Position numbers and translations under genes: made by a program | Notes under the pieces: generated by a model | Database searches by the model: none | What the model saw: only the letters and a program-made list of their open reading frames with translations | What the model was told of the DNA's origin: nothing | Origin: Aliarcobacter faecis | GTDB taxonomy: Bacteria > Campylobacterota > Campylobacteria > Campylobacterales > Arcobacteraceae | Assembly (NCBI RefSeq): GCF_013201705.1 | Contig: NZ_CP053837.1 | Span: 1,054,001 to 1,118,000 of the forward strand | Reading direction: 5' to 3' | DNA: 64,000 nt | Shown here: in pieces, positions 29,819 to 53,857 of the stretch | Position numbering within the stretch: position 1 is the first letter of the stretch | Layout of the letters: the number at the start of each line of letters is the position of its first letter

Positions 29819-29846
29819 AGTATTGAAAACTATAATAATCAATATA
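29819..29846 (+). other. Left dif-like junction site (attL)
   Basis: The 28-base site has an 11-6-11 layout: left arm AGTATTGAAAA, core CTATAA, right arm TAATCAATATA. The left arm is perfect and shared with the middle site; 27 bases (TTATAATTT through the core and one more T) match the middle site on the opposite strand. The right arm is degenerate and belongs to the inserted element. It should be the boundary between chromosome and left element. Confidence 0.75.
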
Positions 29847-29950
29847 AACTTAAATATAGCTTTAAATTTTGCTTTTTTTGTTTCTAGTATTTTTTTAATT
29901 TTGTAATTAAAACAAAATAAAACTTAAAAAACAATTAATTTTAATTGTTC

Positions 29951-30088
29951 TTATTTTAACTTATCTTTAGTTTCTAAAACTGTTAATCTTTTTTCTATTG
30001 CAAAGGCAAATTTAAAAACAGGGTACAAAACCAAAGTATTTAACAATATCAAAAATTGAGATATATTATTTATTATTTCTAAATTCAT
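29951..30088 (-). CDS. Small single-helix membrane protein of the element (left copy)
   Basis: A 45-residue frame whose ATG directly follows the spike gene stop, so translation is probably coupled. It has one hydrophobic helix (about residues 9-30) and a charged C-terminal segment ending ETKDKLK. The right copy has the same protein with a different tail (ETKQK). Near-identity over the body supports it as a real gene. The function is unknown; a virion membrane or lysis accessory role is possible. Confidence 0.65.
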   Translation of the reverse strand: MNLEIINNISQFLILLNTLVLYPVFKFAFAIEKRLTVLETKDKLK

Positions 30089-31594
30089 TTAATTAACCAC
30101 TATATCTTTTTTAAAAAGATTTAAATGAGTTTCGTCTTTTGAAACAACAGTATTTGGCACAGTAATATACTTATTGTCTTTCATGATTGAAACTTGAAAA
30201 GTTTCAAATGGGTAAACCCTGTTTTGAGTTGTTTTATCTTTAAAATCAAGATAGAAAGCCACAACTAAATCATCATTTTTAATAACGGTTGCATATTCAA
30301 CTTCAATATTCTCAGGCGGAGTACCATTATCATATTTAAAAACTAAACCATTATAGTAATCAGAAGCAACAGTAAGAACTAATGACCCCTTTAAGCCTTG
30401 TGCATTATAATATAGAATTGATATTACATCTCCAATATTAACAGAAAGACCAAAAACAAAATAAAATCTATTCTTTAACAAAGCTCCATCTTGATACAAC
30501 AAATTCTTATTTTTTAAATATTCAAATTTGTACTCTATATTTGTATTTTCTCCACTATTATCTTCACCGCCTTGATTGTTTTCTCCATTATTGTTTTCGC
30601 CATTATCTTCACCACCTTGAGAAGAAGCAAGAACAAATACACCACTGTTTTTTATATTATTTTGTATAAGTTCAACAAAACCATCAAACCCAGTATAAAT
30701 ACCATTGTTTACTAAATATCCCAGAAAATCTAAATCATTCCCATTTTTACCTATTAATGAAGCAAGATACTCATGTTCCGTTCCTGAAAAACCATTTTTT
30801 AAAGCTAATTCATAAGCTGATAATCCATTTTGACCTTTTAAACTATCTTTTTGAGATTGTGTTAAATCTTCAAAATTCCCATTTTGTCCTTTTAAAGAGT
30901 CTAAATATTCCTGCTCTGTTCCTGAAAAACCATTTTTTAAAGCTAATTCATAAGCTGATAATCCATCTTGACCTTTTAAGCTATCTTTTTGAGATTGTGT
31001 TAAATCTTCAAAATTCCCATTTTCTCCTTTTAAAGAGTCTAAATATTGCTGCTCTGTTCCTGAAAAACCATTTTTTAGTGCAAGTTCATAAGCTGATAAT
31101 CCATCTTTACCTTTTAAACTATCTTTTTGAGATTGTGTTAAATCTTCAAAATTTCCATCTTTTCCTTTTAAAGAATTTAAAAAATCTATTTCATTACCCT
31201 CAAACCCATATCTTTTAGCTAATTCATAAGCACCATCTCCTTTATCTCCCTTATCTCCTTTAACTTTTAAAAACTCTTTTTGTTCAGGTGTTAAAGTATC
31301 AAATTCTATTTTTAAAGTATTTATCTCTAAATTTGTTAAAACTGAATTTAATTGCTCTAATTTTTGATTAAAAGTAACTTTCAAGGCTTCAAGTTCTGCA
31401 ACTGTGTAATTTATAGTTTTATTTGATAACTGATTTAAAACATTATTGATATCAGATATCTCTTTATCTATATCTTTTGCTTCACTTGGTGTCAAATCTG
31501 ATGACTCTAATCTATCCAAAAAGTACTTGCTTTGTTTTTGTAAACCTAAAAGCAAATTTTGTAAGATTGATTGTTGTAATTCTGTATTATCCAT
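30089..31594 (-). CDS. Collagen-like repeat spike/receptor-binding protein (left copy)
   Basis: The 501 residues fall into four parts. Residues 1-105 are a helical, coiled-coil-like stalk. Residues about 112-290 hold KGDKGDKGD followed by three and a half 46-residue repeats built on GLSAYELALKNGFSGTEQ and YLDSLKG. Residues about 325-352 are a Gly/Asn/Glu-rich linker, and a C-terminal domain of about 150 residues completes the chain. The A-Y-E-L-A-x-x-N-G-F-x-G-T-E repeat is common in phage tail fibres and surface adhesins. It is nearly identical to the right copy (one visible Q/K difference in a repeat). Receptor binding is inferred. Confidence 0.8.
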   Translation of the reverse strand: MDNTELQQSILQNLLLGLQKQSKYFLDRLESSDLTPSEAKDIDKEISDINNVLNQLSNKTINYTVAELEALKVTFNQKLEQLNSVLTNLEINTLKIEFDTLTPEQKEFLKVKGDKGDKGDGAYELAKRYGFEGNEIDFLNSLKGKDGNFEDLTQSQKDSLKGKDGLSAYELALKNGFSGTEQQYLDSLKGENGNFEDLTQSQKDSLKGQDGLSAYELALKNGFSGTEQEYLDSLKGQNGNFEDLTQSQKDSLKGQNGLSAYELALKNGFSGTEHEYLASLIGKNGNDLDFLGYLVNNGIYTGFDGFVELIQNNIKNSGVFVLASSQGGEDNGENNNGENNQGGEDNSGENTNIEYKFEYLKNKNLLYQDGALLKNRFYFVFGLSVNIGDVISILYYNAQGLKGSLVLTVASDYYNGLVFKYDNGTPPENIEVEYATVIKNDDLVVAFYLDFKDKTTQNRVYPFETFQVSIMKDNKYITVPNTVVSKDETHLNLFKKDIVVN

Positions 31595-31626
31595 ACTTTA
31601 TCCTTTTTTTTATTTTTTATGTAAAT

Positions 31627-31660
31627 TAAAAAAGGCTAGATAAATCAATATCTAACCTTT
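31627..31660 (-). terminator. Terminator after the 132-residue protein gene (left copy)
   Basis: On the minus strand AAAGGTTAGATA and TATCTAGCCTTTTTT form a stem with a T-run, about 28 bases past the stop. It is identical in the right copy. Partial read-through would make the compact upstream gene more abundant than the spike. Confidence 0.82.
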
Positions 31661-31688
31661 GTATTTTTTTGTTATCTATAAATAGATA

Positions 31689-32087
31689 TTAAAGTAAACC
31701 AAAGTTTGCAGTATCTAATGAAACATCTTTTGGTGTATCTGCACTATATGGAGCAGGGAATGGTTTGCAAGACATTAAATAAGCATAAACATTTGATATT
31801 GGAGTTTTAAACACTATAGGTCTTCTACTACTATTTGCTACATAAATAGGAACGTGTACACCGTGCTTAATAAGTACTCTATCACTAGCATTTACTGAAC
31901 TTGTAGCAGTTGAAACACCTGTAACAGATAAAGTTAAATTTTGCTCATATACTTCAACCTCGCCTTCTAAAAGAGCGATATATCCAGCAATCTCAGACTC
32001 ATCAAGTTGTATTGTTGATGTTCCTGATTTTTCTCCTCTTCCACCCCAGTTTGTTTTTTGTTTAATTATAAATTTTTTTTGAGCCAT
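31689..32087 (-). CDS. Conserved 132-residue protein, candidate major structural protein (left copy)
   Basis: Not a family I recognise. The 132 residues lack membrane helices and signal peptide and look beta-rich after a basic N-terminus (MAQKKFIIKQKTNWGGRGE). The protein is identical in both copies. It has a consensus promoter about 120 bases upstream, an A-rich leader and a strong terminator directly after it, as expected for an abundantly made product. A capsid or capsid-decoration subunit is the leading guess; an abundant DNA-binding protein is the alternative. Confidence 0.75.
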   Translation of the reverse strand: MAQKKFIIKQKTNWGGRGEKSGTSTIQLDESEIAGYIALLEGEVEVYEQNLTLSVTGVSTATSSVNASDRVLIKHGVHVPIYVANSSRRPIVFKTPISNVYAYLMSCKPFPAPYSADTPKDVSLDTANFGLL

Positions 32088-32204
32088 TTTATTTTTTTTC
32101 CTTTTAATTTTAATTTTGTTTTTTTTATAATCCTAGTTCTTTTAAAAATCTTCTTTTTTATTTTTTTGAGGTTTTGCAAGACTTAAAAGCTATTGATTGA
32201 TGAA

Positions 32205-32233
32205 ATTAAAGAGTTTTTTAAAAAGGTTGTCAA
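32205..32233 (-). promoter_or_regulatory. Strong promoter of the 132-residue protein gene (left copy)
   Basis: On the minus strand TTGACA (32233-32228) and TTTAAT (32210-32205) are separated by 17 bases. The match and spacing are unusually good for this AT-rich genome, and the whole box is the same in the right copy. Confidence 0.65.
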
Positions 32234-32236
32234 TAG

Positions 32237-32293
32237 TTCAATTTTTTTCTTATGAAGTCCGATTTTATAGGTGTTTTAAAGAAAAAAATTGAA
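32237..32293. other. Conserved 15-base-pair hairpin upstream of the promoter (left copy)
   Basis: TTCAATTTTTTTCTT (32237-32251) pairs perfectly with AAGAAAAAAATTGAA (32279-32293) around a 27-base loop. In the right copy two stem pairs are changed on both sides (CAAT/ATTG here, CCGT/ACGG there) while the loop is nearly the same. Matching changes on both strands show that pairing itself is maintained. Confidence 0.7.
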
Positions 32294-32338
32294 ATAGGTA
32301 ATTTTTTGGGGTTTTAAAAGTTGTTAAAAGTAGGGTGT

Positions 32339-32791
32339 TTATAGATTACGATTTTTTAAGGGATAAACATAAACAGCAATAAATGGAATAAAAATAAAGC
32401 ACAATAACCAAAATGTCTTATCTTTAGTGTTTGTAAAAATTTTATAAATTCCATATATCCATAAAATGCAAAAATTCAATATTATAAATAAACCCATAAT
32501 AATAGATAATGTTTCATTTATAAGAATAGAGAAAATACCGAAAATATGAAGAAAAATTTGAATATTTAAAAATAAATAATCTATTTCATTTTCTTTATTA
32601 TTATTTGAATTTATATTTATAACTTTTTGAGAAGTTTTAGAATTTAAAGAGTCTATCTTTTGATTATTTATATTAGTATTATTTTTTGACTTAATTGTCT
32701 TATATGTTATTTCATCTTCTAAAGCTTCATTTTCAGCTTTTAAAACTTTTTTTTCATCATTCCAATAGTTTTTTAAATCATCATTTTTCAT
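32339..32791 (-). CDS. Membrane protein of the left-only cassette, gene 2
   Basis: The 150-residue protein has an N-terminal charged part starting MKNDDLKNYWNDEKK, a Ser/Asn-rich middle and about three hydrophobic helices from residue 75 on. The N-terminal phrase is repeated in the gene just upstream, so the pair arose by duplication. The right copy has two unrelated secreted proteins in this position. Superinfection exclusion or immunity is a reasonable guess; there is no family evidence. Confidence 0.7.
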   Translation of the reverse strand: MKNDDLKNYWNDEKKVLKAENEALEDEITYKTIKSKNNTNINNQKIDSLNSKTSQKVININSNNNKENEIDYLFLNIQIFLHIFGIFSILINETLSIIMGLFIILNFCILWIYGIYKIFTNTKDKTFWLLCFIFIPFIAVYVYPLKNRNL

Positions 32792-33150
32792 TTAATTTTA
32801 TTCTCGAATTTTGAAAAAAAAATAACAATATTAAGAAAAGGGACTAAACAAAGAAATATATTTATAAACTTATCTGGATAATCATCTTTAACAACTCTAT
32901 AGACAGCTAAAAAGAAAAAAATAAAATTAAAATAAATAAATTGATGATAATCGCTTTTATAAATATTAAAAAGTAAAAAAGTAAAGAGAGAAGATGAAAA
33001 AAAGATTATCAAATTAACATTAAATTTATAATTTTCTATTTTTTCATATTCCTTTAATCTTAAATGTTCATTTTCTGTTTTTATTTCTTTAAATGCTTTA
33101 TTGAGTTTTTTGTCATCTTCCCAATAGTTTTTTAAATCATCATTTTTCAT
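32788..33150 (-). CDS. Membrane protein of the left-only cassette, gene 1
   Basis: The 120-residue protein begins MKNDDLKNYWEDDKK, has a charged helix to about residue 42 and then about three hydrophobic helices. It is a paralogue of the next gene, overlapping it by four bases. An AAGGA ribosome site precedes the start. No recognised family; copy-specific. Confidence 0.7.
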   Translation of the reverse strand: MKNDDLKNYWEDDKKLNKAFKEIKTENEHLRLKEYEKIENYKFNVNLIIFFSSSLFTFLLFNIYKSDYHQFIYFNFIFFFLAVYRVVKDDYPDKFINIFLCLVPFLNIVIFFSKFENKIK

Positions 33151-33195
33151 TTAATTTTTTCCTTGTATATTATAAAATTAAGTTTGAAGTATATA

Positions 33196-33936
33196 TCATT
33201 TTAGATAAAACTTTATTTTATCTTTATCTATTCTTTTATTTCTGAACTTTAGAGTTTCGGTAATAACATTTTGAATTACTTTAAAATCTTTATACTTTTT
33301 GATATTTGGAATAAAGCTAACCATTTGAAAATTACCATCATAAATTTTAAAGCTTACTCTTTTAAAATAGTTTCCATCATCTTTTTTAATTGCTACATTT
33401 ACATATTCAAACTCTCTTATTTCTATTAATTGACCTGAAACAAATTTATCAAAAAAGTTTTTTAATTCTTGTACATTATTAGAATAAAAGTTTTCTGTAT
33501 AAGTTCTACTATTATATTTATACACTACTTGGAAGAGATTTTGGTCAAGTATAGTTTCGTCTTTTATATCAACTCTTACATCATCATAAAAACCTATTAT
33601 AGGCTCATCTACAATCAATTGAGTTTTTAAAAATTTTTCGATATCTTCTTTTGTAGTGGTAGGCTTTAGATTATATAAATCAATTTGCTTTGAATGATTA
33701 TTTGAATAACAAAAAAATGACCATTTATAAATTCCATAATCTTCACTTGGGAATCTATCTATATTATCATTAGTACCTATTTTAAAATTTTTAGAATAGA
33801 TAACTTTTTTAATATTTAATATTTCAGCTTCTGAAATTTCAGTAATTAAATTAAAACAATCGTTATAGTTATCAGCTTCAAGGAAGAAGCTATCAACCCT
33901 ACCTAATTGAGTAGAGATATGGTATATATTTGACAT
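33196..33936 (-). CDS. Unknown 246-residue element protein (left copy)
   Basis: A soluble, mixed alpha/beta protein with no signal peptide, membrane helix or motif that I recognise. The partner in the right copy differs by only a few residues near the C-terminus (for example YKDFKVIQNVITE here, HKDFKVIQNAIIE there). It has an AAGGATA ribosome site. It may be a virion component or assembly factor. Confidence 0.75.
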   Translation of the reverse strand: MSNIYHISTQLGRVDSFFLEADNYNDCFNLITEISEAEILNIKKVIYSKNFKIGTNDNIDRFPSEDYGIYKWSFFCYSNNHSKQIDLYNLKPTTTKEDIEKFLKTQLIVDEPIIGFYDDVRVDIKDETILDQNLFQVVYKYNSRTYTENFYSNNVQELKNFFDKFVSGQLIEIREFEYVNVAIKKDDGNYFKRVSFKIYDGNFQMVSFIPNIKKYKDFKVIQNVITETLKFRNKRIDKDKIKFYLK

Positions 33937-33962
33937 AATTATCCTTTATTTTCTTTTTAGTA

Positions 33963-33986
33963 CCATAACGGGCGAAGCCCTTATGG
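33963..33986. terminator. GGGC-TTCG-CCC hairpin (left copy)
   Basis: CCATAA-CGGGCGAAGCCC-TTATGG forms a tight stem with a TTCG/CGAA tetraloop between the 252- and 246-residue genes. A close relative of this hairpin recurs in the structured gap at about 39965-39989. It may slow transcription, protect mRNA ends or act as a DNA structure in single-stranded replication. Confidence 0.6.
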
Positions 33987-33990
33987 TTAA

Positions 33991-34749
33991 TTACTTAACA
34001 ACTCCCGAACGATTAACAACTTTAAGCAATGCTTCCGTTAAGTTAAATATTTCGCCCTCACTATTTTTTGCAAACTCTGAATATTGATTTAATTTTTCAA
34101 CAAGTTTACTCCAACTTTCCGCACTACTATCTGTTATTTTTTCGCCCGTTACTCTTTCAAAGAGTTTTTTATCTACATTTGTATTTTTCCAAGTGCTAGT
34201 TTTCGTTTTATGAAGATACAAGTTAAAGTTTTCTTGACTTGAAACTCCTTTAATTTGTGAAGCTTTACCACCCATATCTAAAAGTCTATTTTCCATATTC
34301 ATACGAATATTTTTATCTTGATAGATTTTATTATCAATGTGATTCAAATTATCATTTATTATTTTTGCTACTTGTATTCTTTCTGATGTTTTATCAGCAC
34401 CAATAACAGCGGAAGCTAAAGCAAGACCTTTTTTGCCTATTTTTGAAGATGTTTTTAATTTACTAATTTTTTGTTTCATTTTTCCAACAACTATATAAGC
34501 CCAAAGCATAGTAAATCTAGTTCCTGCTTTTCTTATATATTCCATTATGTGCATATAAGCATATAATGTAAGACCCATTGAGAGAGTTGTAATAAAGTTT
34601 TGTACAGCTCCATCGAAATCGCTATCACTTTCAAAATCTTTTTTTACGGGTTCTGTATATTCTCTCATTTTACGAAAAAGAAAAGATGATAAAAAATCAT
34701 CTATTCCATCTTCTACACTATTACCTAAAATATTTCCTAAGCTTTGCAT
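33991..34749 (-). CDS. Unknown 252-residue element protein with hydrophobic segment (left copy)
   Basis: The N-terminal 50 residues are charged, followed by one hydrophobic stretch (FITTLSMGLTLYAYMHIMEYI, about 52-72), a Lys-rich segment and a helical C-terminal half. No Walker A motif, so it is not a packaging ATPase. The C-terminal 130 residues are identical in both copies; substitutions cluster around residues 90-125. It follows the 344-residue gene by one base, so the two are probably partners. Confidence 0.75.
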   Translation of the reverse strand: MQSLGNILGNSVEDGIDDFLSSFLFRKMREYTEPVKKDFESDSDFDGAVQNFITTLSMGLTLYAYMHIMEYIRKAGTRFTMLWAYIVVGKMKQKISKLKTSSKIGKKGLALASAVIGADKTSERIQVAKIINDNLNHIDNKIYQDKNIRMNMENRLLDMGGKASQIKGVSSQENFNLYLHKTKTSTWKNTNVDKKLFERVTGEKITDSSAESWSKLVEKLNQYSEFAKNSEGEIFNLTEALLKVVNRSGVVK

Positions 34750-34750
34750 A

Positions 34751-35785
34751 TTAAATTTCTCCTACACTTTTAATATTATATTTAGTTTTTTTCTCTTTAA
34801 AATCTTCCGTAAACTCATCTTTTAATCTATTTAAAATGACTTCAAAAGGGTTATAATCTAAGTCAAAACCATCGCTAACCATATCTTCAACAAAATCAGT
34901 TATATCGTCCATATCAAAAGAGTTTTCAGATTTTAAGGCTTCAATCTCTTCCTTTAATCTAATAACTTCCAATTCTCTTTTATTTACTTTAGTTCCATTA
35001 TATGTTATATCTTTCTCGTCTTCCATAGCATTAGTTTTTTCTAAAGTTTTATTAATTGCTTCTAAACCTTTAGAAGTATCGGAATTAGTTAATTGAGTAG
35101 TTACACCTCTTACCGCAGTTCTAATAATATCTCCACTTTCTTCGGTAGATTTTGCTAAATCTTTAAATCCTTGTTTTGTGGCTTTTTCAACATTTTCTAT
35201 ATTTTCAGCTACTACACCATTCATTGCGATATTAGAGAAACTTAAATCATTAGAATATTCAAAAACTTTGGATAAAGCAGAAATATTAACAGCAATTGAA
35301 GATAAAATATTATTTTGTTTAGATTGTTCTGCGAAAGAATTTAAACCAGAAATAGACACAGACTCAACTAAAGAAGATAAATGAGTATTTATCCCTATAA
35401 TAGATTTATTTAAAAATTCTAATTGTTTTTCAATTCTTAAAGAATTTTCGCTTAATACAGATAATAAATTTGTAGTATTTACAACAGTTGGAGCAATAGG
35501 AATATCTGCAGCTTTAGGTAAAGTAGCATAATAATCCATAAGTTTTTCACTTATAAACTTTCCTCCAACTTCAAGTTCTTCAACCAATTCAATAGATTTT
35601 TTATTAAAAATATCACTTTCAGTTTTATAATATTTTACTAACCCAACATCTAATTTATTGTGCTCATCTATAGCAATAGCAGTAGCAGTAACACCAACAC
35701 CTAAAAAAGCAGATGCTTTACTATATATTGTGGGAATAGCAGACCTAATATAAGAACCAACAGCAAGAGCAATAGGAACAGCCAT
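34751..35785 (-). CDS. 344-residue protein with copy-specific N-terminus (left copy)
   Basis: The left version starts with hydrophobic helices (MAVPIALAVGSYI, then VGVTATAIAI) and continues with long heptad-like helices. Only the last 60 or so residues (from SFDMDDITDF onward, including DGFDLDYNPFEVIL) match the right copy. The rest is unrelated, although both proteins are exactly 344 residues. This swap of the N-terminal domain on a constant C-terminal anchor suggests a part facing the host or other phages. The conserved tail probably docks to the following 252-residue protein. Confidence 0.78.
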   Translation of the reverse strand: MAVPIALAVGSYIRSAIPTIYSKASAFLGVGVTATAIAIDEHNKLDVGLVKYYKTESDIFNKKSIELVEELEVGGKFISEKLMDYYATLPKAADIPIAPTVVNTTNLLSVLSENSLRIEKQLEFLNKSIIGINTHLSSLVESVSISGLNSFAEQSKQNNILSSIAVNISALSKVFEYSNDLSFSNIAMNGVVAENIENVEKATKQGFKDLAKSTEESGDIIRTAVRGVTTQLTNSDTSKGLEAINKTLEKTNAMEDEKDITYNGTKVNKRELEVIRLKEEIEALKSENSFDMDDITDFVEDMVSDGFDLDYNPFEVILNRLKDEFTEDFKEKKTKYNIKSVGEI

Positions 35786-35787
35786 AT

Positions 35788-35901
35788 TTAATTACCCCCT
35801 AATATTTTTAAGATAGCTTTTAAAGTAGTATCAATGCTTTGTAATAGTGTCTTACAATCATCTATTACTACAATTTCCTCGTATTCGTTTTCATTTTCCA
35901 T
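35788..35901 (-). CDS. Small 37-residue acidic protein (left copy)
   Basis: An ATG-started frame of 37 residues (MENENEYEEIVVIDDCK, then an amphipathic helix ending LKILGGN) lies between the 402- and 344-residue genes. The same frame, with a different last few residues (GGANGS), is kept in the right copy, where it overlaps the next gene. Conservation in both supports coding. Function unknown. Confidence 0.6.
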   Translation of the reverse strand: MENENEYEEIVVIDDCKTLLQSIDTTLKAILKILGGN

Positions 35902-35906
35902 TTTTT

Positions 35907-37115: not shown

Positions 37116-37117
37116 AA

Positions 37118-37351
37118 TTAAGCCTTAGATTTTTGGCAAGTAATCATATTACAATTACTTAAAGCATTTGAAATCTCTTTTGTAATTGTATTATTACTTT
37201 GTTCGGCAAGATAATCAATAGCTAGTTTTGAAACTTCTAGCAATTTATCATCTTTTTTTGTATCAGTTGTTTTAATATATTCACTTATTGTTTTAGTTGC
37301 AACTGGAATAAGCAAATTTATAAAAACTTGTTTTAAAATTGTTAGTAACAT
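37118..37351 (-). CDS. Holin-like 77-residue protein (left copy)
   Basis: One N-terminal hydrophobic helix (LLTILKQVFINLLIPVATKTI) is followed by a charged helix. It starts within the lysozyme stop (TAATG overlap). Position directly after a lysozyme gene and the single helix suggest a holin or lysis regulator, but one helix and a long soluble part are not diagnostic. Identical in both copies. Confidence 0.55.
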   Translation of the reverse strand: MLLTILKQVFINLLIPVATKTISEYIKTTDTKKDDKLLEVSKLAIDYLAEQSNNTITKEISNALSNCNMITCQKSKA

Positions 37352-44250: not shown

Positions 44251-44279
44251 AACTTAAAAAAAAAGAAAAAAAAATCTTA

Positions 44280-44316: not shown

Positions 44317-44365
44317 AAAATAAGCACCCCTACCCTAAATAGTAGAAAAAAAGGAACTTTAAAAA

Positions 44366-45718: not shown

Positions 45719-45903
45719 TGAGTAGATTATATTTTAAACAAAATGAAATTCTTGTTTTAAATGCTATGTGTGAACTTGTACAAGATAATATAGAAAATGA
45801 GAAAAAAATAAATATATCAGCTTTTACAATAGCTAAAAGATGTGGGATTTCTTACAACGCTGTAAGAAGAAATATTAAAAGATTAATGGAGTTAAAAAAA
45901 TGA
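45718..45903 (+). CDS. Small helix-turn-helix protein (right copy)
   Basis: A 61-residue HTH protein (TIAKRCGISYNAVRRN) overlapping rep at its start and the lysozyme gene at its end. Identical to the left copy. Confidence 0.75.
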   Translation: MSRLYFKQNEILVLNAMCELVQDNIENEKKINISAFTIAKRCGISYNAVRRNIKRLMELKK

Positions 45904-46349: not shown

Positions 46350-46582
46350 TGTTACTAACAATTTTAAAACAAGTTTTTATAAATTTGCTTATTCCAGTTG
46401 CAACTAAAACAATAAGTGAATATATTAAAACAACTGATACAAAAAAAGATGATAAATTGCTAGAAGTTTCAAAACTAGCTATTGATTATCTTGCCGAACA
46501 AAGTAATAATACAATTACAAAAGAGATTTCAAATGCTTTAAGTAATTGTAATATGATTACTTGCCAAAAATCTAAGGCTTAA
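46349..46582 (+). CDS. Holin-like 77-residue protein (right copy)
   Basis: One N-terminal membrane helix and a charged tail ending CNMITCQKSKA. Overlaps the lysozyme stop. Identical to the left copy. Confidence 0.55.
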   Translation: MLLTILKQVFINLLIPVATKTISEYIKTTDTKKDDKLLEVSKLAIDYLAEQSNNTITKEISNALSNCNMITCQKSKA

Positions 46583-46584
46583 TT

Positions 46585-47793
46585 ATGTCTCAAATTGTAG
46601 ATTTGGAAAACTATCCAAGAGGTCGTTATCCTTTGGATATCTATAAATTTAATAGTAATAATTTTGATTTTGTTATAGGTGATTTTAAAGAATTAAGTTA
46701 TCCTAATGTTGAATTTATAGCTCCATATTATGAGCAATATGTCTCTAAAACAGATAATGATGGTCAAACAACGGAAGTACTAGAAGCTTTTCCATATATT
46801 GATATCCCTCGAAATTATCTTTTTAATGAGTTTTCAGCAGTTACAGAATTAAATGTTAATTATAAAGGCTTCACAAAAGAAAATCTATTTATTTTAGATA
46901 ATGAAAAATATGAAATAAAAATTTATTCTGAAGCTCCAAATATTGCTAAATATTTTAGCCAAGAGCAAATAAATGAATTTTATATTTTAAAAGAATATGA
47001 TTATTATAAATCTTATTCTTTGCCCTTTACAACTTATCCTGATTATATTTCTCCTATCGCACTACATACTCAAATAATCCCCGATTACATGGAAAGAATA
47101 TTTTTTAATATTGATGTGCATTATGGAAGAAATCATAGTAATTTTAAAAAGATTGTTGAATATATGGAACACTTTTTGAATTGGGAATACAATAAAAATT
47201 TTTTTACTTTTATAAATAAATTTAGTTTAAATGTTGGTAAATTAAATTTTTATAAAGGTATTCAATATCTCGAAACTGAAGTGATAGACTATTTAGGAAG
47301 TATTCATCGTCCATATGTCGAAGAAAATATTTTTTTGTTTGATTTTAAAGAGATATTTTCTTATTCAAAACAAATTAAAAAAGAAGATTTTAATCTACTT
47401 TTTGAACTACTTAATATAAATTCAAGTAATGCAAACTCTTATCTAATTTCTGGATTAGGGCAAAGGCAATATCATTTAAGTAAATACTTAAAAGAAAATT
47501 ATAAAAATTTTCAATTCCCCCTATTCTCTTCTACTCTTGTAATTCAAGATTACTTTGCATATTTTTTTTATACTCAAAAACATATCTATGACGGAATATA
47601 TGTAAATGAGAGACAAGAGGAACAAATAAAAATAAAATCTAGCGATACGATAACTATTCATATTGCATTTTTAAAAGGTGTTGAACAAGGTGAAAAGTTT
47701 AAGAAATTTTATGGAGCTCTTGAACTTTTAGGTAATAAAGTAAAAATAAAATATAAGTGTTGTCTTTTAGACTGCTTAAAAAATAAAGGTTAA
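46585..47793 (+). CDS. Unknown 402-residue element protein, candidate virion protein (right copy)
   Basis: Differs from the left copy at scattered sites, such as KTDNDGQTT for KIDNYGQST near residue 55 and YSKQIKK for HSIEIKK near 264, with the frame intact. The substitutions are of the kind seen in surface-exposed regions. No family recognised. Confidence 0.75.
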   Translation: MSQIVDLENYPRGRYPLDIYKFNSNNFDFVIGDFKELSYPNVEFIAPYYEQYVSKTDNDGQTTEVLEAFPYIDIPRNYLFNEFSAVTELNVNYKGFTKENLFILDNEKYEIKIYSEAPNIAKYFSQEQINEFYILKEYDYYKSYSLPFTTYPDYISPIALHTQIIPDYMERIFFNIDVHYGRNHSNFKKIVEYMEHFLNWEYNKNFFTFINKFSLNVGKLNFYKGIQYLETEVIDYLGSIHRPYVEENIFLFDFKEIFSYSKQIKKEDFNLLFELLNINSSNANSYLISGLGQRQYHLSKYLKENYKNFQFPLFSSTLVIQDYFAYFFYTQKHIYDGIYVNERQEEQIKIKSSDTITIHIAFLKGVEQGEKFKKFYGALELLGNKVKIKYKCCLLDCLKNKG

Positions 47794-47797
47794 AAAA

Positions 47798-47920
47798 ATG
47801 GAAAATGAAAACGAATATGAGGAAATTGTAGTAATAGATGATTGTAAAACACTATTACAAAGCATTGATACTACTTTAAAAGCTATCTTAAAAATATTAG
47901 GGGGAGCAAATGGCTCATAA
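47798..47920 (+). CDS. Small 40-residue acidic protein (right copy)
   Basis: Same N-terminal 36 residues as the left copy's 37-residue protein. The end differs because the frame runs into the start of the next gene (overlap 47910-47920). Conservation across the domain-swap boundary supports it as a gene. Confidence 0.6.
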   Translation: MENENEYEEIVVIDDCKTLLQSIDTTLKAILKILGGANGS

Positions 47921-48944
47921 ACAATTATATGGTGTTTGTTACAGTGATTGTTCTGATGAAAGCCACCCTAATAAAAATAATGATTTTATGGAAACGGGGG
48001 ATTGGTTACATAATGATTTTTTAGTTCGTGGAGTTCGTTCTAATAAGGGTTTTATGATTATAAATTCTGTCTGCACAATTAACGATTTTAAGAAATTAAA
48101 AGGTGTTATGGATAGTAGTGATAAAGATGTTTCGTTCTCTTTAGACGCAGAAAAAGATAGAGAAGAAAAGTTAAGTAGTTCATTTTCAAATGTTCCAGGT
48201 GCTAAAATCTCTTATCCAGAAGATAAATATAAAGATGTAAAAAAAGATATTGTTGTTCCTACTGATTTGCTTATGGCTTCTCAATTTTCTCATTTGCTTA
48301 ATAAATATAATTCTGATTTAAATTACGAAAAAATAAAATATGATAGTTCTTTAAATCTGGCTAGAACAAAAGAAATGATTGAACAAACAGAAACTTTAAA
48401 AAAAATATTTCAATCAAATGCAGGTTTAGTAAAAATCGAAGCTCAAAAATTAGAAATTGAAAGTAAAAATTTAGCTATTCAAGAAAAAATATCTAAAAAA
48501 GAAACAACATTTAAAAATACTGCAAATATAACAAATACATTTGATAAAGAGTTTGCGGAAGTTTTAGGAAATAAAATATCTGATAGTATAAAGCCCATTT
48601 TAGAGCAACAAAATAAGACTTTAGAAAGTATTAATAATATTTTAAAAACACAAGATACTTATTATAAAAATCTAACTGCTAAAACTGTTAATTTTGAGGG
48701 GAAAGATTATAGTCCACAAGAGATAGAGAATTTTAAAAATGTAGAGCAATTAAAAGGCTCTAAAGATGAAAACTCATTTAATATGGAGGATATAGTTGAT
48801 TTTATAGAAGATATCTTTAGCGATGGTTTTGACTTAGATTATAACCCTTTTGAAGTCATTTTAAATAAATTAAAAGATGAGTTTACGGAAGATTTTAAAG
48901 AGAAAAAAACTAAATATAATATTAAAAGTGTAGGAGAAATTTAA
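47910..48944 (+). CDS. 344-residue protein with copy-specific N-terminus (right copy)
   Basis: This version begins MAHKQLYGVCYSDCSDESHPN, is soluble with cysteines near the N-terminus, and has a long helical region from about residue 105 to 240. It lacks the hydrophobic N-terminus of the left allele. The last 60 residues, from SFNMEDIVDF onward, match the left copy. GGGGG before the start acts as ribosome site. Confidence 0.78.
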   Translation: MAHKQLYGVCYSDCSDESHPNKNNDFMETGDWLHNDFLVRGVRSNKGFMIINSVCTINDFKKLKGVMDSSDKDVSFSLDAEKDREEKLSSSFSNVPGAKISYPEDKYKDVKKDIVVPTDLLMASQFSHLLNKYNSDLNYEKIKYDSSLNLARTKEMIEQTETLKKIFQSNAGLVKIEAQKLEIESKNLAIQEKISKKETTFKNTANITNTFDKEFAEVLGNKISDSIKPILEQQNKTLESINNILKTQDTYYKNLTAKTVNFEGKDYSPQEIENFKNVEQLKGSKDENSFNMEDIVDFIEDIFSDGFDLDYNPFEVILNKLKDEFTEDFKEKKTKYNIKSVGEI

Positions 48945-48945
48945 T

Positions 48946-49704
48946 ATGCAAAGCTTAGGAAATATTTTAGGTAATAGTGTAGAAGATGGAATAGATGATT
49001 TTGTATCATCTTTTCTTTTTCGTAAAATGAGAGAATATACAGAACCCGTAAAAAAAGATTTTGAAAGCGATAGTGATTTCGATGGAGCTGTACAAAACTT
49101 TATTACAACTTTATCAATGGGTCTTACATTATATGCTTATATGCACATAATGGAATATATAAGAAAAGCAGGAACTAGATTTACTATGCTTTGGGCTTAT
49201 ATTGTTGCTGGAAAAATGAAAGAAAAAATTAAAAAACTTAAACCTACTTCGAAAATTGGTAAAAAAGGATTAAGACTTGCTACTGCTGTAATCGGTGCTG
49301 ATAAAACTGGCGAAAGAATACAAGTAGCAAAAATAATAAATGATAATTTAAATCATATTGATAATAAGATTTATCAAGATAAAAATATTCGTATGAATAT
49401 GGAAAATAGGCTTTTAGATATGGGCGGTAAAGCTTCACAAATTAAAGGAGTTTCAAGTCAAGAGAATTTTAATCTATATCTTCATAAAACTAAAACTAGC
49501 ACTTGGAAAAATACAAATGTAGATAAGAAACTTTTTGAGAGAGTAACGGGCGAAAAAATAACAGATAGTAGTGCGGAAAGTTGGAGTAAACTTGTTGAAA
49601 AATTAAATCAATATTCAGAGTTTGCAAAAAATAGTGAGGGCGAAATATTTAACCTAACGGAAGCATTGCTTAAAGTTGTTAATCGTTCGGGAGTTGTTAA
49701 GTAA
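48946..49704 (+). CDS. Unknown 252-residue element protein with hydrophobic segment (right copy)
   Basis: Same layout as the left copy. Differences cluster around residues 90-125 (for example GKMKEKIKKLKPTSKIGKKGLRLATAV). The flanking parts are identical, a short patch of exchange. No nucleotide-binding motif. Confidence 0.75.
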   Translation: MQSLGNILGNSVEDGIDDFVSSFLFRKMREYTEPVKKDFESDSDFDGAVQNFITTLSMGLTLYAYMHIMEYIRKAGTRFTMLWAYIVAGKMKEKIKKLKPTSKIGKKGLRLATAVIGADKTGERIQVAKIINDNLNHIDNKIYQDKNIRMNMENRLLDMGGKASQIKGVSSQENFNLYLHKTKTSTWKNTNVDKKLFERVTGEKITDSSAESWSKLVEKLNQYSEFAKNSEGEIFNLTEALLKVVNRSGVVK

Positions 49705-49708
49705 TTAA

Positions 49709-49732
49709 CCATAAGGGCTTCGCCCGTTATGG
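49709..49732. terminator. GGGC-TTCG-CCC hairpin (right copy)
   Basis: CCATAAGGGC and GCCCGTTATGG-type arms close a TTCG loop five bases after the 252-residue gene. No strong T-run, so processing or pausing is as likely as termination. Confidence 0.6.
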
Positions 49733-49758
49733 TACTAAAAAGAAAATAAAGGATAATT

Positions 49759-50499
49759 ATGTCAAATATATACCATATCTCTACTCAATTAGGTAGGGTT
49801 GATAGCTTCTTCCTTGAAGCTGATAACTATAACGATTGTTTTAATTTAATTACTGAAATTTCAGAAGCTGAAATATTAAATATTAAAAAAGTTATCTATT
49901 CTAAAAATTTTAAAATAGGTACTAATGATAATATAGATAGATTCCCAAGTGAAGATTATGGAATTTATAAATGGTCATTTTTTTGTTATTCAAATAATCA
50001 TTCAAAGCAAATTGATTTATATAATCTAAAGCCTACCACTACAAAAGAAGATATCGAAAAATTTTTAAAAACTCAATTGATTGTAGATGAGCCTATAATA
50101 GGTTTTTATGATGATGTAAGAGTTGATATAAAAGACGAAACTATACTTGACCAAAATCTCTTCCAAGTAGTGTATAAATATAATAGTAGAACTTATACAG
50201 AAAACTTTTATTCTAATAATGTACAAGAATTAAAAAACTTTTTTGATAAATTTGTTTCAGGTCAATTAATAGAAATAAGAGAGTTTGAATATGTAAATGT
50301 AGCAATTAAAAAAGATGATGGAAACTATTTTAAAAGGTTAAGCTTTAAGATTTATGATGGTAACTTACAAATGGTCAGCTTTATTCCAAATATCAAAAAG
50401 CATAAAGATTTTAAAGTAATTCAAAATGCTATTATCGAAACTCTAAAGTTCAGAAATAAAAGAATAGAGAAAGATAAGATAAAGTTTTATCTAAAATGA
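49759..50499 (+). CDS. Unknown 246-residue element protein (right copy)
   Basis: Nearly the same as the left copy. It ends at the edge of the exchanged cassette, and the differences gather toward that edge (last 60 residues), which fits a recombination boundary there. Confidence 0.75.
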   Translation: MSNIYHISTQLGRVDSFFLEADNYNDCFNLITEISEAEILNIKKVIYSKNFKIGTNDNIDRFPSEDYGIYKWSFFCYSNNHSKQIDLYNLKPTTTKEDIEKFLKTQLIVDEPIIGFYDDVRVDIKDETILDQNLFQVVYKYNSRTYTENFYSNNVQELKNFFDKFVSGQLIEIREFEYVNVAIKKDDGNYFKRLSFKIYDGNLQMVSFIPNIKKHKDFKVIQNAIIETLKFRNKRIEKDKIKFYLK

Positions 50500-50549
50500 T
50501 TTTATATATACTTCAAACTTAATTTTTATAAATACACAAGGAAAATTAA

Positions 50550-50927
50550 ATGAAAAAAATATTATTAATATTATTGTTTTTAAGCTCTTTGCTTTTTTCA
50601 TCTGAAAATATTGTATATAATAAAGATTATATTCCAAGAAGCTATCCAAAAGGTTTAAATGATTTAGAAAGGTTTAAAACTAAATATTTTTTTGATGCAG
50701 TTAAATCGCTTGTTTATTATCATACTATGAATATTCAAAAAGAAAAAAGAATAGATTTGATAGTTAGTTTTAATGATGTCTATGATATAAAATTTATTTT
50801 AAAAAATAATCTTTCAAAGTTTGACGAAGATATTTTGATTAAAGTTTTAGAAGATTTAAAAAAAGATAAAAATATTGGAGATACTTTTTTTACTTATAAA
50901 GATTTGATTATGACAATTTTTATTTAA
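50550..50927 (+). CDS. Secreted protein of the right-only cassette, gene 1
   Basis: 125 residues with a clear signal peptide (MKKILLILLFLSSLLFSSENI) and a charged mature part. No recognised family. The same ribosome site and leader (AAGGAAAATTAAATG) are used by gene 2 and by the unrelated left-copy genes, so the cassette was exchanged within a conserved frame. Confidence 0.7.
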   Translation: MKKILLILLFLSSLLFSSENIVYNKDYIPRSYPKGLNDLERFKTKYFFDAVKSLVYYHTMNIQKEKRIDLIVSFNDVYDIKFILKNNLSKFDEDILIKVLEDLKKDKNIGDTFFTYKDLIMTIFI

Positions 50928-50940
50928 TAAGGAAAATTAA

Positions 50941-51315
50941 ATGAAAAAAATAATAATAGTTTTGATATTACTTTTAAATATATCTTTTGCTAAAGATGGA
51001 TATTTTAGAATTAAAACAAAAGAAAATGAGAAAAATGGAATATATATATATGAACATTGTTCAAAAAGATTAAAAGAACATTTAGAAGTAGATTTTAATT
51101 TTGAAATAGGTTTTGATAATAAAAAATTATCTTATTATGATTTAAAAATAAATAAATCAAATGATTATTCAAATGAAGCAATAAAAAGTATAAATGATTT
51201 TTTGATTTGTTCTGTTGAATACTATTTGACAAATGAAGATTTTATTAAAAATATTTTAACTTCTCAAAAATCTTTTATAGGTTATGTAGTATCTATTAAA
51301 AAAAGTAGTGATTAA
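50941..51315 (+). CDS. Secreted protein of the right-only cassette, gene 2
   Basis: 124 residues with a signal peptide (MKKIIIVLILLLNISFAKD) and two cysteines in the mature part (near residues 39 and 92) that could pair in the periplasm. No recognised family. A periplasmic role in blocking reinfection is a guess from position. Confidence 0.7.
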   Translation: MKKIIIVLILLLNISFAKDGYFRIKTKENEKNGIYIYEHCSKRLKEHLEVDFNFEIGFDNKKLSYYDLKINKSNDYSNEAIKSINDFLICSVEYYLTNEDFIKNILTSQKSFIGYVVSIKKSSD

Positions 51316-51375
51316 AAAAAATACTATAAACTACCCTACTTTTAACAACTTTTAAAACCCAAAAAAATTGCCTAT

Positions 51376-51432
51376 TTCCGTTTTTCTCTTTAAAATGCCT
51401 ATAAAATCGAACTTCATAAGAAAAAAACGGAA
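51376..51432. other. Conserved 15-base-pair hairpin upstream of the promoter (right copy)
   Basis: TTCCGTTTTTCTCTT (51376-51390) pairs with AAGAAAAAAACGGAA (51418-51432), one mismatch. Compared with the left copy, C-G and G-C pairs replace two A-T pairs at matching positions while the loop (with CCTATAAAATCG) is kept. Confidence 0.7.
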
Positions 51433-51435
51433 CTA

Positions 51436-51464
51436 TTGACAACCTTTTTAAAAAACTCTTTAAT
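51436..51464 (+). promoter_or_regulatory. Strong promoter of the 132-residue protein gene (right copy)
   Basis: TTGACA (51436-51441), a 17-base spacer and TTTAAT (51459-51464), four bases past the hairpin. It predicts a leader of about 110 bases before the gene. Confidence 0.65.
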
Positions 51465-51581
51465 TTCATCAATCAATAGCTTTTAAGTCTTGCAAAACCT
51501 CAAAAAAATAAAAAAGAAGATTTTTAAAAGAACTAGGATTATAAAAAAAACAAAATTAAAATTAAAAGGAAAAAAAATAAA

Positions 51582-51980
51582 ATGGCTCAAAAAAAATTTA
51601 TAATTAAACAAAAAACAAACTGGGGTGGAAGAGGAGAAAAATCAGGAACATCAACAATACAACTTGATGAGTCTGAGATTGCTGGATATATCGCTCTTTT
51701 AGAAGGCGAGGTTGAAGTATATGAGCAAAATTTAACTTTATCTGTTACAGGTGTTTCAACTGCTACAAGTTCAGTAAATGCTAGTGATAGAGTACTTATT
51801 AAGCACGGTGTACACGTTCCTATTTATGTAGCAAATAGTAGTAGAAGACCTATAGTGTTTAAAACTCCAATATCAAATGTTTATGCTTATTTAATGTCTT
51901 GCAAACCATTCCCTGCTCCATATAGTGCAGATACACCAAAAGATGTTTCATTAGATACTGCAAACTTTGGTTTACTTTAA
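51582..51980 (+). CDS. Conserved 132-residue protein, candidate major structural protein (right copy)
   Basis: Identical to the left copy. Beta-rich pattern in the middle (QNLTLSVTGVSTATSSVNAS) and a Pro-rich C-terminal part (CKPFPAPYSADTPKD). No signal peptide or membrane helix, unlike the coat proteins of filamentous phages. AAAAGGA ribosome site. Confidence 0.75.
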   Translation: MAQKKFIIKQKTNWGGRGEKSGTSTIQLDESEIAGYIALLEGEVEVYEQNLTLSVTGVSTATSSVNASDRVLIKHGVHVPIYVANSSRRPIVFKTPISNVYAYLMSCKPFPAPYSADTPKDVSLDTANFGLL

Positions 51981-52008
51981 TATCTATTTATAGATAACAA
52001 AAAAATAC

Positions 52009-52042
52009 AAAGGTTAGATATTGATTTATCTAGCCTTTTTTA
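52009..52042 (+). terminator. Terminator after the 132-residue protein gene (right copy)
   Basis: AAAGGTTAGATA and TATCTAGCC form the stem (one G-T pair), followed by TTTTTTT. Confidence 0.82.
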
Positions 52043-52074
52043 ATTTACATAAAAAATAAAAAAAAGGATAAAGT

Positions 52075-53580
52075 ATGGATAATACAGAATTACAACAATC
52101 AATCTTACAAAATTTGCTTTTAGGTTTACAAAAACAAAGCAAGTACTTTTTGGATAGATTAGAGTCATCAGATTTGACACCAAGTGAAGCAAAAGATATA
52201 GATAAAGAGATATCTGATATCAATAATGTTTTAAATCAGTTATCAAATAAAACTATAAATTACACAGTTGCAGAACTTGAAGCCTTGAAAGTTACTTTTA
52301 ATCAAAAATTAGAGCAATTAAATTCAGTTTTAACAAATTTAGAGATAAATACTTTAAAAATAGAATTTGATACTTTAACACCTGAACAAAAAGAGTTTTT
52401 AAAAGTTAAAGGAGATAAGGGAGATAAAGGAGATGGTGCTTATGAATTAGCTAAAAGATATGGGTTTGAGGGTAATGAAATAGATTTTTTAAATTCTTTA
52501 AAAGGAAAAGATGGAAATTTTGAAGATTTAACACAATCTAAAAAAGATAGTTTAAAAGGTAAAGATGGATTATCAGCTTATGAACTTGCACTAAAAAATG
52601 GTTTTTCAGGAACAGAGCAGCAATATTTAGACTCTTTAAAAGGAGAAAATGGGAATTTTGAAGATTTAACACAATCTCAAAAAGATAGCTTAAAAGGTCA
52701 AGATGGATTATCAGCTTATGAATTAGCTTTAAAAAATGGTTTTTCAGGAACAGAGCAGGAATATTTAGACTCTTTAAAAGGACAAAATGGGAATTTTGAA
52801 GATTTAACACAATCTCAAAAAGATAGTTTAAAAGGTCAAAATGGATTATCAGCTTATGAATTAGCTTTAAAAAATGGTTTTTCAGGAACGGAACATGAGT
52901 ATCTTGCTTCATTAATAGGTAAAAATGGGAATGATTTAGATTTTCTGGGATATTTAGTAAACAATGGTATTTATACTGGGTTTGATGGTTTTGTTGAACT
53001 TATACAAAATAATATAAAAAACAGTGGTGTATTTGTTCTTGCTTCTTCTCAAGGTGGTGAAGATAATGGCGAAAACAATAATGGAGAAAACAATCAAGGC
53101 GGTGAAGATAATAGTGGAGAAAATACAAATATAGAGTACAAATTTGAATATTTAAAAAATAAGAATTTGTTGTATCAAGATGGAGCTTTGTTAAAGAATA
53201 GATTTTATTTTGTTTTTGGTCTTTCTGTTAATATTGGAGATGTAATATCAATTCTATATTATAATGCACAAGGCTTAAAGGGGTCATTAGTTCTTACTGT
53301 TGCTTCTGATTACTATAATGGTTTAGTTTTTAAATATGATAATGGTACTCCGCCTGAGAATATTGAAGTTGAATATGCAACCGTTATTAAAAATGATGAT
53401 TTAGTTGTGGCTTTCTATCTTGATTTTAAAGATAAAACAACTCAAAACAGGGTTTACCCATTTGAAACTTTTCAAGTTTCAATCATGAAAGACAATAAGT
53501 ATATTACTGTGCCAAATACTGTTGTTTCAAAAGACGAAACTCATTTAAATCTTTTTAAAAAAGATATAGTGGTTAATTAA
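52075..53580 (+). CDS. Collagen-like repeat spike/receptor-binding protein (right copy)
   Basis: Same 501-residue layout as the left copy: helical stalk, KGDKGDKGD, three and a half 46-residue repeats, Gly/Asn/Glu-rich linker and C-terminal domain. One residue differs in the first partial repeat (SKKDS for SQKDS). Its start follows the terminator by about 30 bases, so it depends on read-through or a local promoter. Confidence 0.8.
   Translation: MDNTELQQSILQNLLLGLQKQSKYFLDRLESSDLTPSEAKDIDKEISDINNVLNQLSNKTINYTVAELEALKVTFNQKLEQLNSVLTNLEINTLKIEFDTLTPEQKEFLKVKGDKGDKGDGAYELAKRYGFEGNEIDFLNSLKGKDGNFEDLTQSKKDSLKGKDGLSAYELALKNGFSGTEQQYLDSLKGENGNFEDLTQSQKDSLKGQDGLSAYELALKNGFSGTEQEYLDSLKGQNGNFEDLTQSQKDSLKGQNGLSAYELALKNGFSGTEHEYLASLIGKNGNDLDFLGYLVNNGIYTGFDGFVELIQNNIKNSGVFVLASSQGGEDNGENNNGENNQGGEDNSGENTNIEYKFEYLKNKNLLYQDGALLKNRFYFVFGLSVNIGDVISILYYNAQGLKGSLVLTVASDYYNGLVFKYDNGTPPENIEVEYATVIKNDDLVVAFYLDFKDKTTQNRVYPFETFQVSIMKDNKYITVPNTVVSKDETHLNLFKKDIVVN
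52435..52920 (+). repeat. 138-base tandem repeats inside the spike gene
   Basis: Units of 46 codons recur at exact 138-base steps (for example the GATGGATTATCAG phrase at 52564, 52702 and, with one change, 52840), with a diverged partial unit in front. The mirror lies at 30749-31234. Such in-frame repeats allow the stalk to lengthen or shorten. Confidence 0.9.
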
Positions 53581-53712
53581 ATGAATTTAGAAATAATAAA
53601 TAATATATCTCAATTTTTGATATTGTTAAATACTTTGGTTTTGTACCCTGTTTTTAAATTTGCCTTTGCAATAGAAAAAAGATTAACAATTTTAGAAACT
53701 AAACAAAAATAG
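53581..53712 (+). CDS. Small single-helix membrane protein of the element (right copy)
   Basis: A 43-residue frame starting right after the spike stop, with one membrane helix (about residues 9-30). Body identical to the left copy except Val/Ile37, tail ETKQK. The arms stop being alike within its last codons. Confidence 0.65.
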   Translation: MNLEIINNISQFLILLNTLVLYPVFKFAFAIEKRLTILETKQK

Positions 53713-53829
53713 TAAGAGTTAATCTTATTGTTTTATTTAAGCTTCTATTAAGTTTTTTTATTGTTTAATTTCGGCTAACTTTTAAATAAGTTAGACTTAT
53801 AACAAAATGCTTACAAAGCCCTATTTTAT

Positions 53830-53857
53830 GGTGCTGACAACTATAATTTTCAAACTA
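53830..53857 (+). other. Right dif-like junction site (attR)
   Basis: Left arm GGTGCTGACAA (degenerate, element side), core CTATAA, right arm TTTTCAAACTA (perfect, chromosome side). Joining the left site's left arm to this right arm rebuilds an intact dif: AGTATTGAAAA, CTATAA, TTTTCAAACTA. It lies 52 bases before xerH, as in other Campylobacterota where difH neighbours xerH. Confidence 0.78.

What the first reader, a model, noticed from the sequence alone, without database searches (positions are those of the whole stretch)
29819..53857. Two related 12-kb phage-like elements inserted head to head at dif beside xerH
Seen directly: every gene from 29951 to 41200 reappears in mirror order from 42500 to 53712. 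Partner coordinates sum to constants (83700, 83695, 83669), and three dif-like sites mark left end, middle and right end. Phages that use host Xer recombination (CTX, VGJ, TLC types) are known from Vibrio and form direct tandem arrays; an inverted pair at an XerH/dif site is not something I know of.
Basis: partly seen in the sequence, partly recalled or inferred. Interest (0 to 1): 0.88.

Follow-up and report, generated by a model that had tools for sequence, protein, structure and literature searches.

The report
Head-to-head phage pair at dif
Two related but distinct small viruses sit nose to nose in an Arcobacter-type chromosome at the spot the cell uses to separate its chromosome copies, apparently put there by the cell's own enzyme because each virus carries one half of that spot, and the two brought opposite halves.

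Summary
The mirror is real: two 12.0-kb elements (A 29836-41836, genes minus; B 41843-53840, genes plus) lie head to head between ribBA and xerH. They are mosaic relatives, not copies: 4370 bp carries one difference, but the dif-proximal winged-helix genes are 49% identical and other blocks differ. The outer dif sites each have one good XerH arm; the middle site has both and is inverted. The joined chromosomal halves equal the dif of 14 of 27 other xerH loci exactly. No integrase was found in A, B or a single dif-inserted relative; seven relatives elsewhere all encode one. In 104 family genomes the winged-helix gene has eight strong matches, all 1-61 bp from dif, in this phage type, in unrelated inoviruses and as one orphan. 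B supplies a left dif arm, A a right arm; both polarities occur in single insertions, though right-arm cases are few. One of each at one dif should give a head-to-head pair around a complete dif. The reversed centre is best explained by recombination between the arms (inferred). These look like Xer-exploiting phages on single-recombinase XerH, not described in the passages I read. Virion type is unknown; structure prediction never ran.

The parts
28755..29786 (+). ribBA, chromosomal neighbour on the left
   Evidence: ORF; name by similarity of reading, homologs found in relatives' loci
29818..29846 (+). Left junction: chromosomal left dif arm 29818-29829, centre CTATAA 29830-29835, degenerate phage arm 29836-29846 (fibre end of A)
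29836..41836 (-). Element A (12.0 kb), genes on minus strand, fibre end outward, winged-helix end at the middle dif
30089..31594 (-). A: 501-aa collagen-like repeat protein, putative fibre
   Evidence: PHROG tail-fibre families on the repeats
31689..32087 (-). A: 132-aa conserved protein, candidate virion protein
   Evidence: 8 of 8 relative loci; no library match
32339..33150 (-). A: variable block, 150- and 120-aa genes
   Evidence: no blastn match to the facing block of B
33196..34749 (-). A: 246- and 252-aa conserved proteins
   Evidence: 8 of 8 relative loci, the first split in two genes in five
34751..35785 (-). A: 344-aa protein, N-terminal part unlike that of B
35907..37115 (-). A: 402-aa protein, variable (46 codons differ from B)
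37351..37800 (-). A: phage lysozyme, 149 aa
   Evidence: PF00959 1.4e-13
37982..39334 (-). A: 450-aa Rep-like protein
   Evidence: PHROG endonuclease family 5e-8; Rep_trans in 1 of 9 family members at 0.008
39450..39845 (-). A: 131-aa conserved protein
   Evidence: 7 of 8 relative loci
41203..41772 (-). A: winged-helix gene, 189 aa, beside a right-type dif arm
41826..41854 (-). Middle dif, both arms good, inverted: right-type arm 41826-41836 (A side), centre 41837-41842, left-type arm 41843-41854 (B side); best match of its pattern in the own genome
41330..42370 (.). Centre between the 5.4-kb arms, not shared between A and B; joins the two elements
41843..53840 (+). Element B (12.0 kb), genes on plus strand
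41916..42497 (+). B: winged-helix gene, 193 aa, beside a left-type dif arm
43855..44250 (+). B: 131-aa conserved protein
   Evidence: one codon differs from A
44366..45718 (+). B: 450-aa Rep-like protein, identical to A's
45900..46349 (+). B: phage lysozyme
46585..47793 (+). B: 402-aa protein
47910..50499 (+). B: 344-, 252-, 246-aa proteins
50550..51315 (+). B: variable block, 125- and 124-aa genes
51582..53580 (+). B: 132-aa protein and 501-aa putative fibre
53829..53857 (+). Right junction: degenerate phage arm 53829-53840 (fibre end of B), centre CTATAA, chromosomal right dif arm 53847-53857
53910..54962 (+). xerH, host dimer-resolution recombinase
   Evidence: relatives in 100 of 104 family genomes, dif beside it in 27 of 29 other loci read

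Best explanation
A and B are two integrase-less temperate phages (or phage-like elements) that integrate through the host's XerH at dif. Each carries at one end a winged-helix gene beside one intact XerH-binding arm; its far end carries a degenerate arm. Integration of a left-arm phage rebuilds a complete dif on its right; integration of a right-arm phage rebuilds one on its left. So one phage of each polarity, in either order, ends up head to head with the only complete dif between them. The observed middle dif, with both winged-helix genes, is reversed against that prediction; the simplest cause is homologous recombination between the near-identical inverted arms, which would flip the central 1 kb reversibly. 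Shown: the architecture, the arms, the absence of a found integrase, the association of the winged-helix gene with dif, both polarities in single insertions elsewhere. Inferred: that XerH acts on these sites, the central flip, that the phages are viable, and that the winged-helix protein helps integration or excision (it could instead be the repressor or a replication protein).
For: Chromosomal halves of the outer sites join to the 29-base dif found exactly in 14 of 27 other xerH loci that have a site. A complete single relative sits at dif beside xerH in G011. No integrase domain in the 10 largest or most distinctive proteins of A or in 10 of G011's dif element; all 7 non-dif relatives have PF00589, five of them in a tRNA-Met site with 46-50 bp repeats. 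Winged-helix gene: 8 of 8 strong matches in 104 genomes lie 1-61 bp from dif (distances by hand), and again in L107. Arm matrix from 23 sites: B left (+19.2 bits), A right (-21.9), G029 right (-11.0), G011, G005, G026, G043, L107 left. Arms differ by 1 in 4370 bp, ample for recombination.
Against: The centre's orientation was not predicted and needs an added step with no direct evidence. Right-arm examples are few: A, G029, and by geometry an unrelated element in G056; G014's left call is weak (2.9 bits). The distal arms do not say which outer end belongs to which phage. Only this one head-to-head pair was found. XerH action and virion production are untested. The chromosomal left arm and B's left arm share about 8 bases beyond the arm, which this model does not explain.
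Confidence: 0.6

Rival explanations
1. Backward integration: the inner four bases of the six-base dif centre (CTATAA) are palindromic, and XerH joined the phages, or the excised 24-kb pair as one circle, in antiparallel alignment, so no flip by homologous recombination is needed.
For: Explains the reversed centre directly; each element would then keep its own two ends. The left outer arm read backward resembles the distal left-type arm of G056 (9 of 12 bases by hand, sequences).
Against: Needs mismatches at two of six centre positions. A alone inserted this way would leave a right-right palindrome, and right-arm palindromes were not stably bound by H. pylori XerH (PMC5241119, passage); B first would avoid this. 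All single insertions scored here fit forward joining.
Confidence: 0.2
2. One 24-kb composite element: the pair moves as a unit bounded by the two direct outer sites, with an internal inverted dif.
For: The outer sites are direct and their recombination would leave a perfect dif.
Against: The relative in G011 is a complete 11-kb single element, and no other pair was found; the composite would be secondary.
Confidence: 0.08
3. Inverted duplication of one element followed by divergence.
For: Long stretches are almost identical.
Against: The winged-helix genes (49%), the 344-aa N-terminus, the two-gene block and both outer ends are too different for a copy while neighbouring kilobases carry 0-1 differences; replacement from other phages would still be needed.
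Confidence: 0.05
4. Assembly artefact: the head-to-head order or the centre's orientation was made by misassembly of the long inverted repeat.
For: Long inverted repeats are error-prone and no reads were available; L015 is probably the same strain.
Against: The head-to-head joint lies in sequence not shared by the arms (41330-42370) and recurs in a second record; the two outer joints are distinct and carry opposite dif halves. Misassembly could still have chosen the wrong orientation of the centre, which would restore the simple prediction.
Confidence: 0.05

Closest known systems
IMEX phages of Vibrio cholerae (CTX, VGJ, TLC types)
   Same: No own integrase, a dif-like attachment site, integration at dif by the host's Xer; TLC-type attP has one good and one divergent arm (PMC5357621 and PMC4246890, passages).
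   Different: Those use XerC/XerD; here XerH alone. Prophages are described there as tandem; here the pair is head to head. A and B encode a lysozyme and were not found to have Zot or secretin genes.
LME-1 of Legionella (IMEX of the single-recombinase XerL system)
   Same: Phage-like element at the dif of a single-recombinase system (PMC9765430, passages).
   Different: XerL, not XerH; LME-1 sequence was not compared here, and I saw no head-to-head pair in the passages.
Inoviruses at the same XerH/dif in G005, G014, G029, G043 and L107
   Same: Winged-helix gene beside a half-dif next to xerH (G029: 2.4 kb from xerH); some share the small 73-aa gene.
   Different: They carry Zot-like and secretin genes; A and B carry a lysozyme, another Rep and other candidate virion genes.
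Integrase-bearing relatives of A and B in tRNA-Met or elsewhere (G002, G011, G021, G031, G032, G082)
   Same: Shared Rep, lysozyme, 344-, 252-, 246-, 132-aa and fibre proteins.
   Different: Tyrosine integrase, no winged-helix gene, not at dif.
Microvirus-related proviruses of Bacteroidetes at dif-like sites
   Same: Small phages proposed to integrate by host Xer (PMC3091885, passages).
   Different: XerC/XerD; microvirus genes. Not compared by sequence here.

Membership tests
IMEX (integrative mobile element exploiting Xer) | Inserted at the host dif, flanked by dif-like sites | tested here: met
   Three dif sites; joined chromosomal halves equal the genus dif
IMEX (integrative mobile element exploiting Xer) | No integrase of its own | tested here: met
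   No integrase domain in 10 proteins of A and 10 of the G011 element; integrase queries hit neither the window nor L016. Small ORFs were not all scanned
IMEX (integrative mobile element exploiting Xer) | Integration catalysed by host Xer | not testable with these tools
   Needs an experiment
Inoviridae | Zot-like assembly ATPase and secretin | tested here: not met
   Zot and secretin queries from L058 hit other loci but not A, B or the G011 element (queries run on L060-L107 loci; the window and L016 were in the database but only L104/L107 rows were printed); library scan of 10 A proteins shows neither
Temperate phage | Lysis and replication genes, conserved gene set in related insertions | tested here: met
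   Lysozyme, Rep-like protein, core set in 8 of 8 relative loci
Temperate phage | Recognisable major capsid protein | tested here: inconclusive
   No sequence match for the 132- and 252-aa candidates; structure prediction never accepted (13 busy answers)

The most novel reading that the evidence does not exclude
A portable XerH-hijacking cassette (winged-helix protein plus one dif arm, left or right) circulates among unrelated small phages of Arcobacteraceae. The winged-helix protein is a phage-encoded XerH-directing factor, and the two arm polarities let two phages share one dif while always leaving a complete dimer-resolution site between them, in a pair whose centre flips. A and B belong to an undescribed phage family with an unknown virion.
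Probability: 0.3. Interest if true: 0.8.

Novelty: new variant of a known kind. Interest (0 to 1): 0.62.

Why it matters
Phages that borrow Xer are known mainly for XerC/XerD. Here the single-recombinase XerH/dif of an Arcobacter-type host holds at least two unrelated phage types that share a dif-side gene, and in one genome a third, ATPase-encoding element. The arm-polarity rule gives a simple, testable account of when two prophages at one dif lie tandem or head to head, and of where the cell's working dif ends up. If the winged-helix protein directs XerH, it would be a phage-encoded handle on a recombinase whose activation is open: the authors of the XerH structures suspect a missing stimulatory factor in vitro, and propose FtsK (PMC5241119, passage).

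Tried and rejected
Structure prediction of the 132-aa protein and of the winged-helix protein was asked 13 times and always answered 'machine busy'. No model exists and no fold search was run, so the virion type stays open.

Winged-helix protein as an FtsK-gamma mimic: profile comparison with the C-terminus of the host FtsK gave probability 0.3%; rejected as a sequence claim. Exchange of the winged-helix gene between phage types: the tree splits G005, G029, G043, L107 from A, B, G011, G014, G026 (98/99), which puts inovirus G014 with this phage type, but one origin per type is not excluded (22% of bootstrap trees). With G005 as query, Zot identity is 51% (G014) and 42% (G029) while winged-helix identity is 35% and 45%, which hints at exchange. 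The Zot and secretin matrices used wrong frames for some rows and are dropped. Promoters at the middle dif: 3 found, 2.3 expected from shuffles. Hairpins of the sites as single strands: middle z -1.55, outer about 0, so no CTX-like folded attP is claimed. Rep in phage and plasmid records: no match. IMG/VR: Rep finds only L015; the 252- and 132-aa proteins find none, not even L015, which ends before them. Genome contigs: first scan none, profile scan two, Aliarcobacter sp. STC_123 and a Sulfurimonas MAG. Dropped row: G045, weak partial Rep match (5.5e-6) with no other phage gene found around it. Not followed: three weak partial winged-helix matches outside the family.
Full report
OBSERVATION. 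The mirror is real. Three blocks of inverted homology of 5435, 2376 and 1747 nt (99, 99, 96%) cover most of 29961-53708, and partner ORF coordinates sum to the constants given. Three dif-like sites lie at 29818 (+), 41826 (-) and 53829 (+). Aligned to each other, the copies are mosaic: 36950-41319 and 42381-46750 (4370 bp) differ once; the 402-aa gene has 46 differing codons; the N-terminal part of the 344-aa protein, a two-gene block, the dif-proximal genes and the outer ends differ strongly; the fibre-132-aa stretch is again nearly identical. This is two related phages with exchanged blocks, not a plain duplication. The paired ORFs have the same lengths in both copies. The own genome has these two Rep copies and otherwise one 37-base match.

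HOST AND SITE. The window is 1,054,001-1,118,000 of contig 1 of a 2-contig, 2.45-Mb genome. xerH relatives occur in 100 of 104 family genomes. Of the 30 best xerH loci read, the window's own shows only its degenerate right site, 27 others have a dif within 6 mismatches of the consensus, and two (G002, G029) have none in the stretch; 14 of the 27 equal the join of the window's chromosomal halves exactly. A near-identical motif, 66 bp from xerH, is published for A. butzleri RM4018 (PMC2731167, passages). In the own genome the middle site is the best match of the core pattern (1 mismatch; the outer sites have 2; with 3 mismatches the pattern is common by chance, 220 forward matches against 176 in the control).

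JUNCTIONS. Left: good left arm, centre CTATAA, poor phage arm. Right: poor phage arm, CTATAA, good right arm. Middle, read on the minus strand: good left arm (B side), CTATAA, good right arm (A side). A weight matrix from 23 dif sites of loci without a recognised insertion (not each checked for other insertions) separates left from right arms by about 20 bits; it calls B's dif-side arm left (+19.2) and A's right (-21.9). In H. pylori the left arm has an extra base and is preferred for binding and cutting (PMC5241119, PMC5357621, passages); here too the left arm is one base longer.

RELATIVES. The Rep protein has 11 matches in 8 of 104 family genomes. One (G045) was dropped as weak and isolated. 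Of the ten left, three are at dif (A, B, one of three in G011) and seven elsewhere. The dif element of G011 is a complete single copy: fibre end at a degenerate site, winged-helix gene 33 bp from a perfect dif, then xerH. All seven others encode a protein with PF00589 above its cut-off. Five are flanked by 46-50 bp repeats; in four of these a tRNA-Met gene was called at the repeat, and the fifth (G031) shares the repeat of G032. Two (G021, G011 third copy) carry another integrase at the fibre end. None of the seven has the winged-helix gene. So this phage family uses two ways of integrating. Rep, lysozyme, 344-, 252-, 246- (split in two genes in five), 132-aa and fibre proteins are found in 8 of 8 relative loci, the 131-aa protein in 7, the 402-aa protein in none by profile.

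WINGED-HELIX GENE. A four-sequence profile finds nine matches in 8 of 104 genomes. Eight are strong (E 8.5e-33 or better) and all lie 1-61 bp from dif: A, B, G011, the inoviruses of G005, G014, G029 and G043, and an orphan copy in G026. The ninth (G056, E 1.9e-7, partial) is not at dif. Among 398 genomes of the order three further weak partial matches lie outside the family and were not examined. In IMG/VR three contigs match: L015 (this pair), the G005 inovirus, and a metagenomic inovirus, L107, again beside dif and xerH; the three contigs with a complete dif of this type are the same. Libraries say winged helix, MarR/Lrs14-like, all below curated cut-offs.

POLARITY AND ORDER. Arm beside the gene: left in B, G011, G005, G026, G043, L107 and weakly G014; right in A and G029. 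An element in G056 with a packaging-ATPase-like gene and its own, different winged-helix gene also sits at dif with right-arm geometry. A left-arm phage yields [chromosomal left + poor] phage [phage left + chromosomal right]; a right-arm phage yields [chromosomal left + phage right] phage [poor + chromosomal right]. One of each, in either order, gives poor end, phage, complete dif, phage, poor end, gene ends facing. That is the window, except that the centre is reversed. Recombination between the near-identical arms would do this without touching the outer ends. Backward joining through the near-palindromic centre is the main rival; the outer arms do not decide.

FUNCTION. Most likely temperate phages using XerH. 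The winged-helix protein is either an XerH-directing factor or a repressor or replication protein that travels with the att half. Its tie to dif in all strong matches and its absence from integrase-bearing kin favour a role linked to XerH; nothing here proves it, and it does not resemble host FtsK-gamma.

LITERATURE. Ten searches. Bearing on novelty: XerH+phage+dif (14 papers), Arcobacter+inovirus (1), two of Arcobacter/prophage/XerH (111, 20 listed), exploiting Xer+Campylobacter (5), difH+prophage (4), dif site+filamentous phage+inverted orientation (3), prophage+dif site+head-to-head (4), Aliarcobacter+filamentous phage (3). Nine papers were opened for passages only; those passages describe no phage at XerH/dif and no head-to-head pair at dif. 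Most subscription papers and all bioRxiv preprints are outside this library.

LIMITS. No reads, no experiment, no structural model; one pair; few right-arm phages; L015 probably not independent.

Noticed in passing
L101 3613-12774 (G056): A different 9.1-kb element at dif beside xerH, with a terminase/ATPase-like gene (PHROG 3.8e-7) and a DnaD-like winged-helix gene next to the dif; right-arm geometry. Possibly a tailless phage; its capsid gene is not identified.
   Followed up: partly
xerH loci L029-L057: dif orientation relative to xerH is opposite in 7 of 27 loci (L046, L048, L053-L057; strands, counted by hand).
   Followed up: no
window 29810-29829 and 41843-41862: The chromosomal left arm and B's left arm share about 8 bases beyond the 12-base arm; the model does not explain this.
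   Followed up: no
L071 3020-3675 (G026): An orphan winged-helix gene between dif and a chemotaxis-type gene, 83% identical to that of the G014 inovirus: a likely remnant of a lost prophage.
   Followed up: partly
L061 1538-2646 and 16942-17991 (G002): Two xerH-like genes (67% and 87% identical to the window's); only the more distant one has a dif-like site within the scanned limit.
   Followed up: no
L104 10001-11956: A Sulfurimonas MAG carries a 35% relative of the Rep protein and of the lysozyme; no XerH-type dif was found in the locus.
   Followed up: no
window 42500-42721 / 40979-41200: A 73-aa protein with paired cysteines, also found in two inoviruses (42-46%, L073, L099) and in L026.
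   Followed up: no
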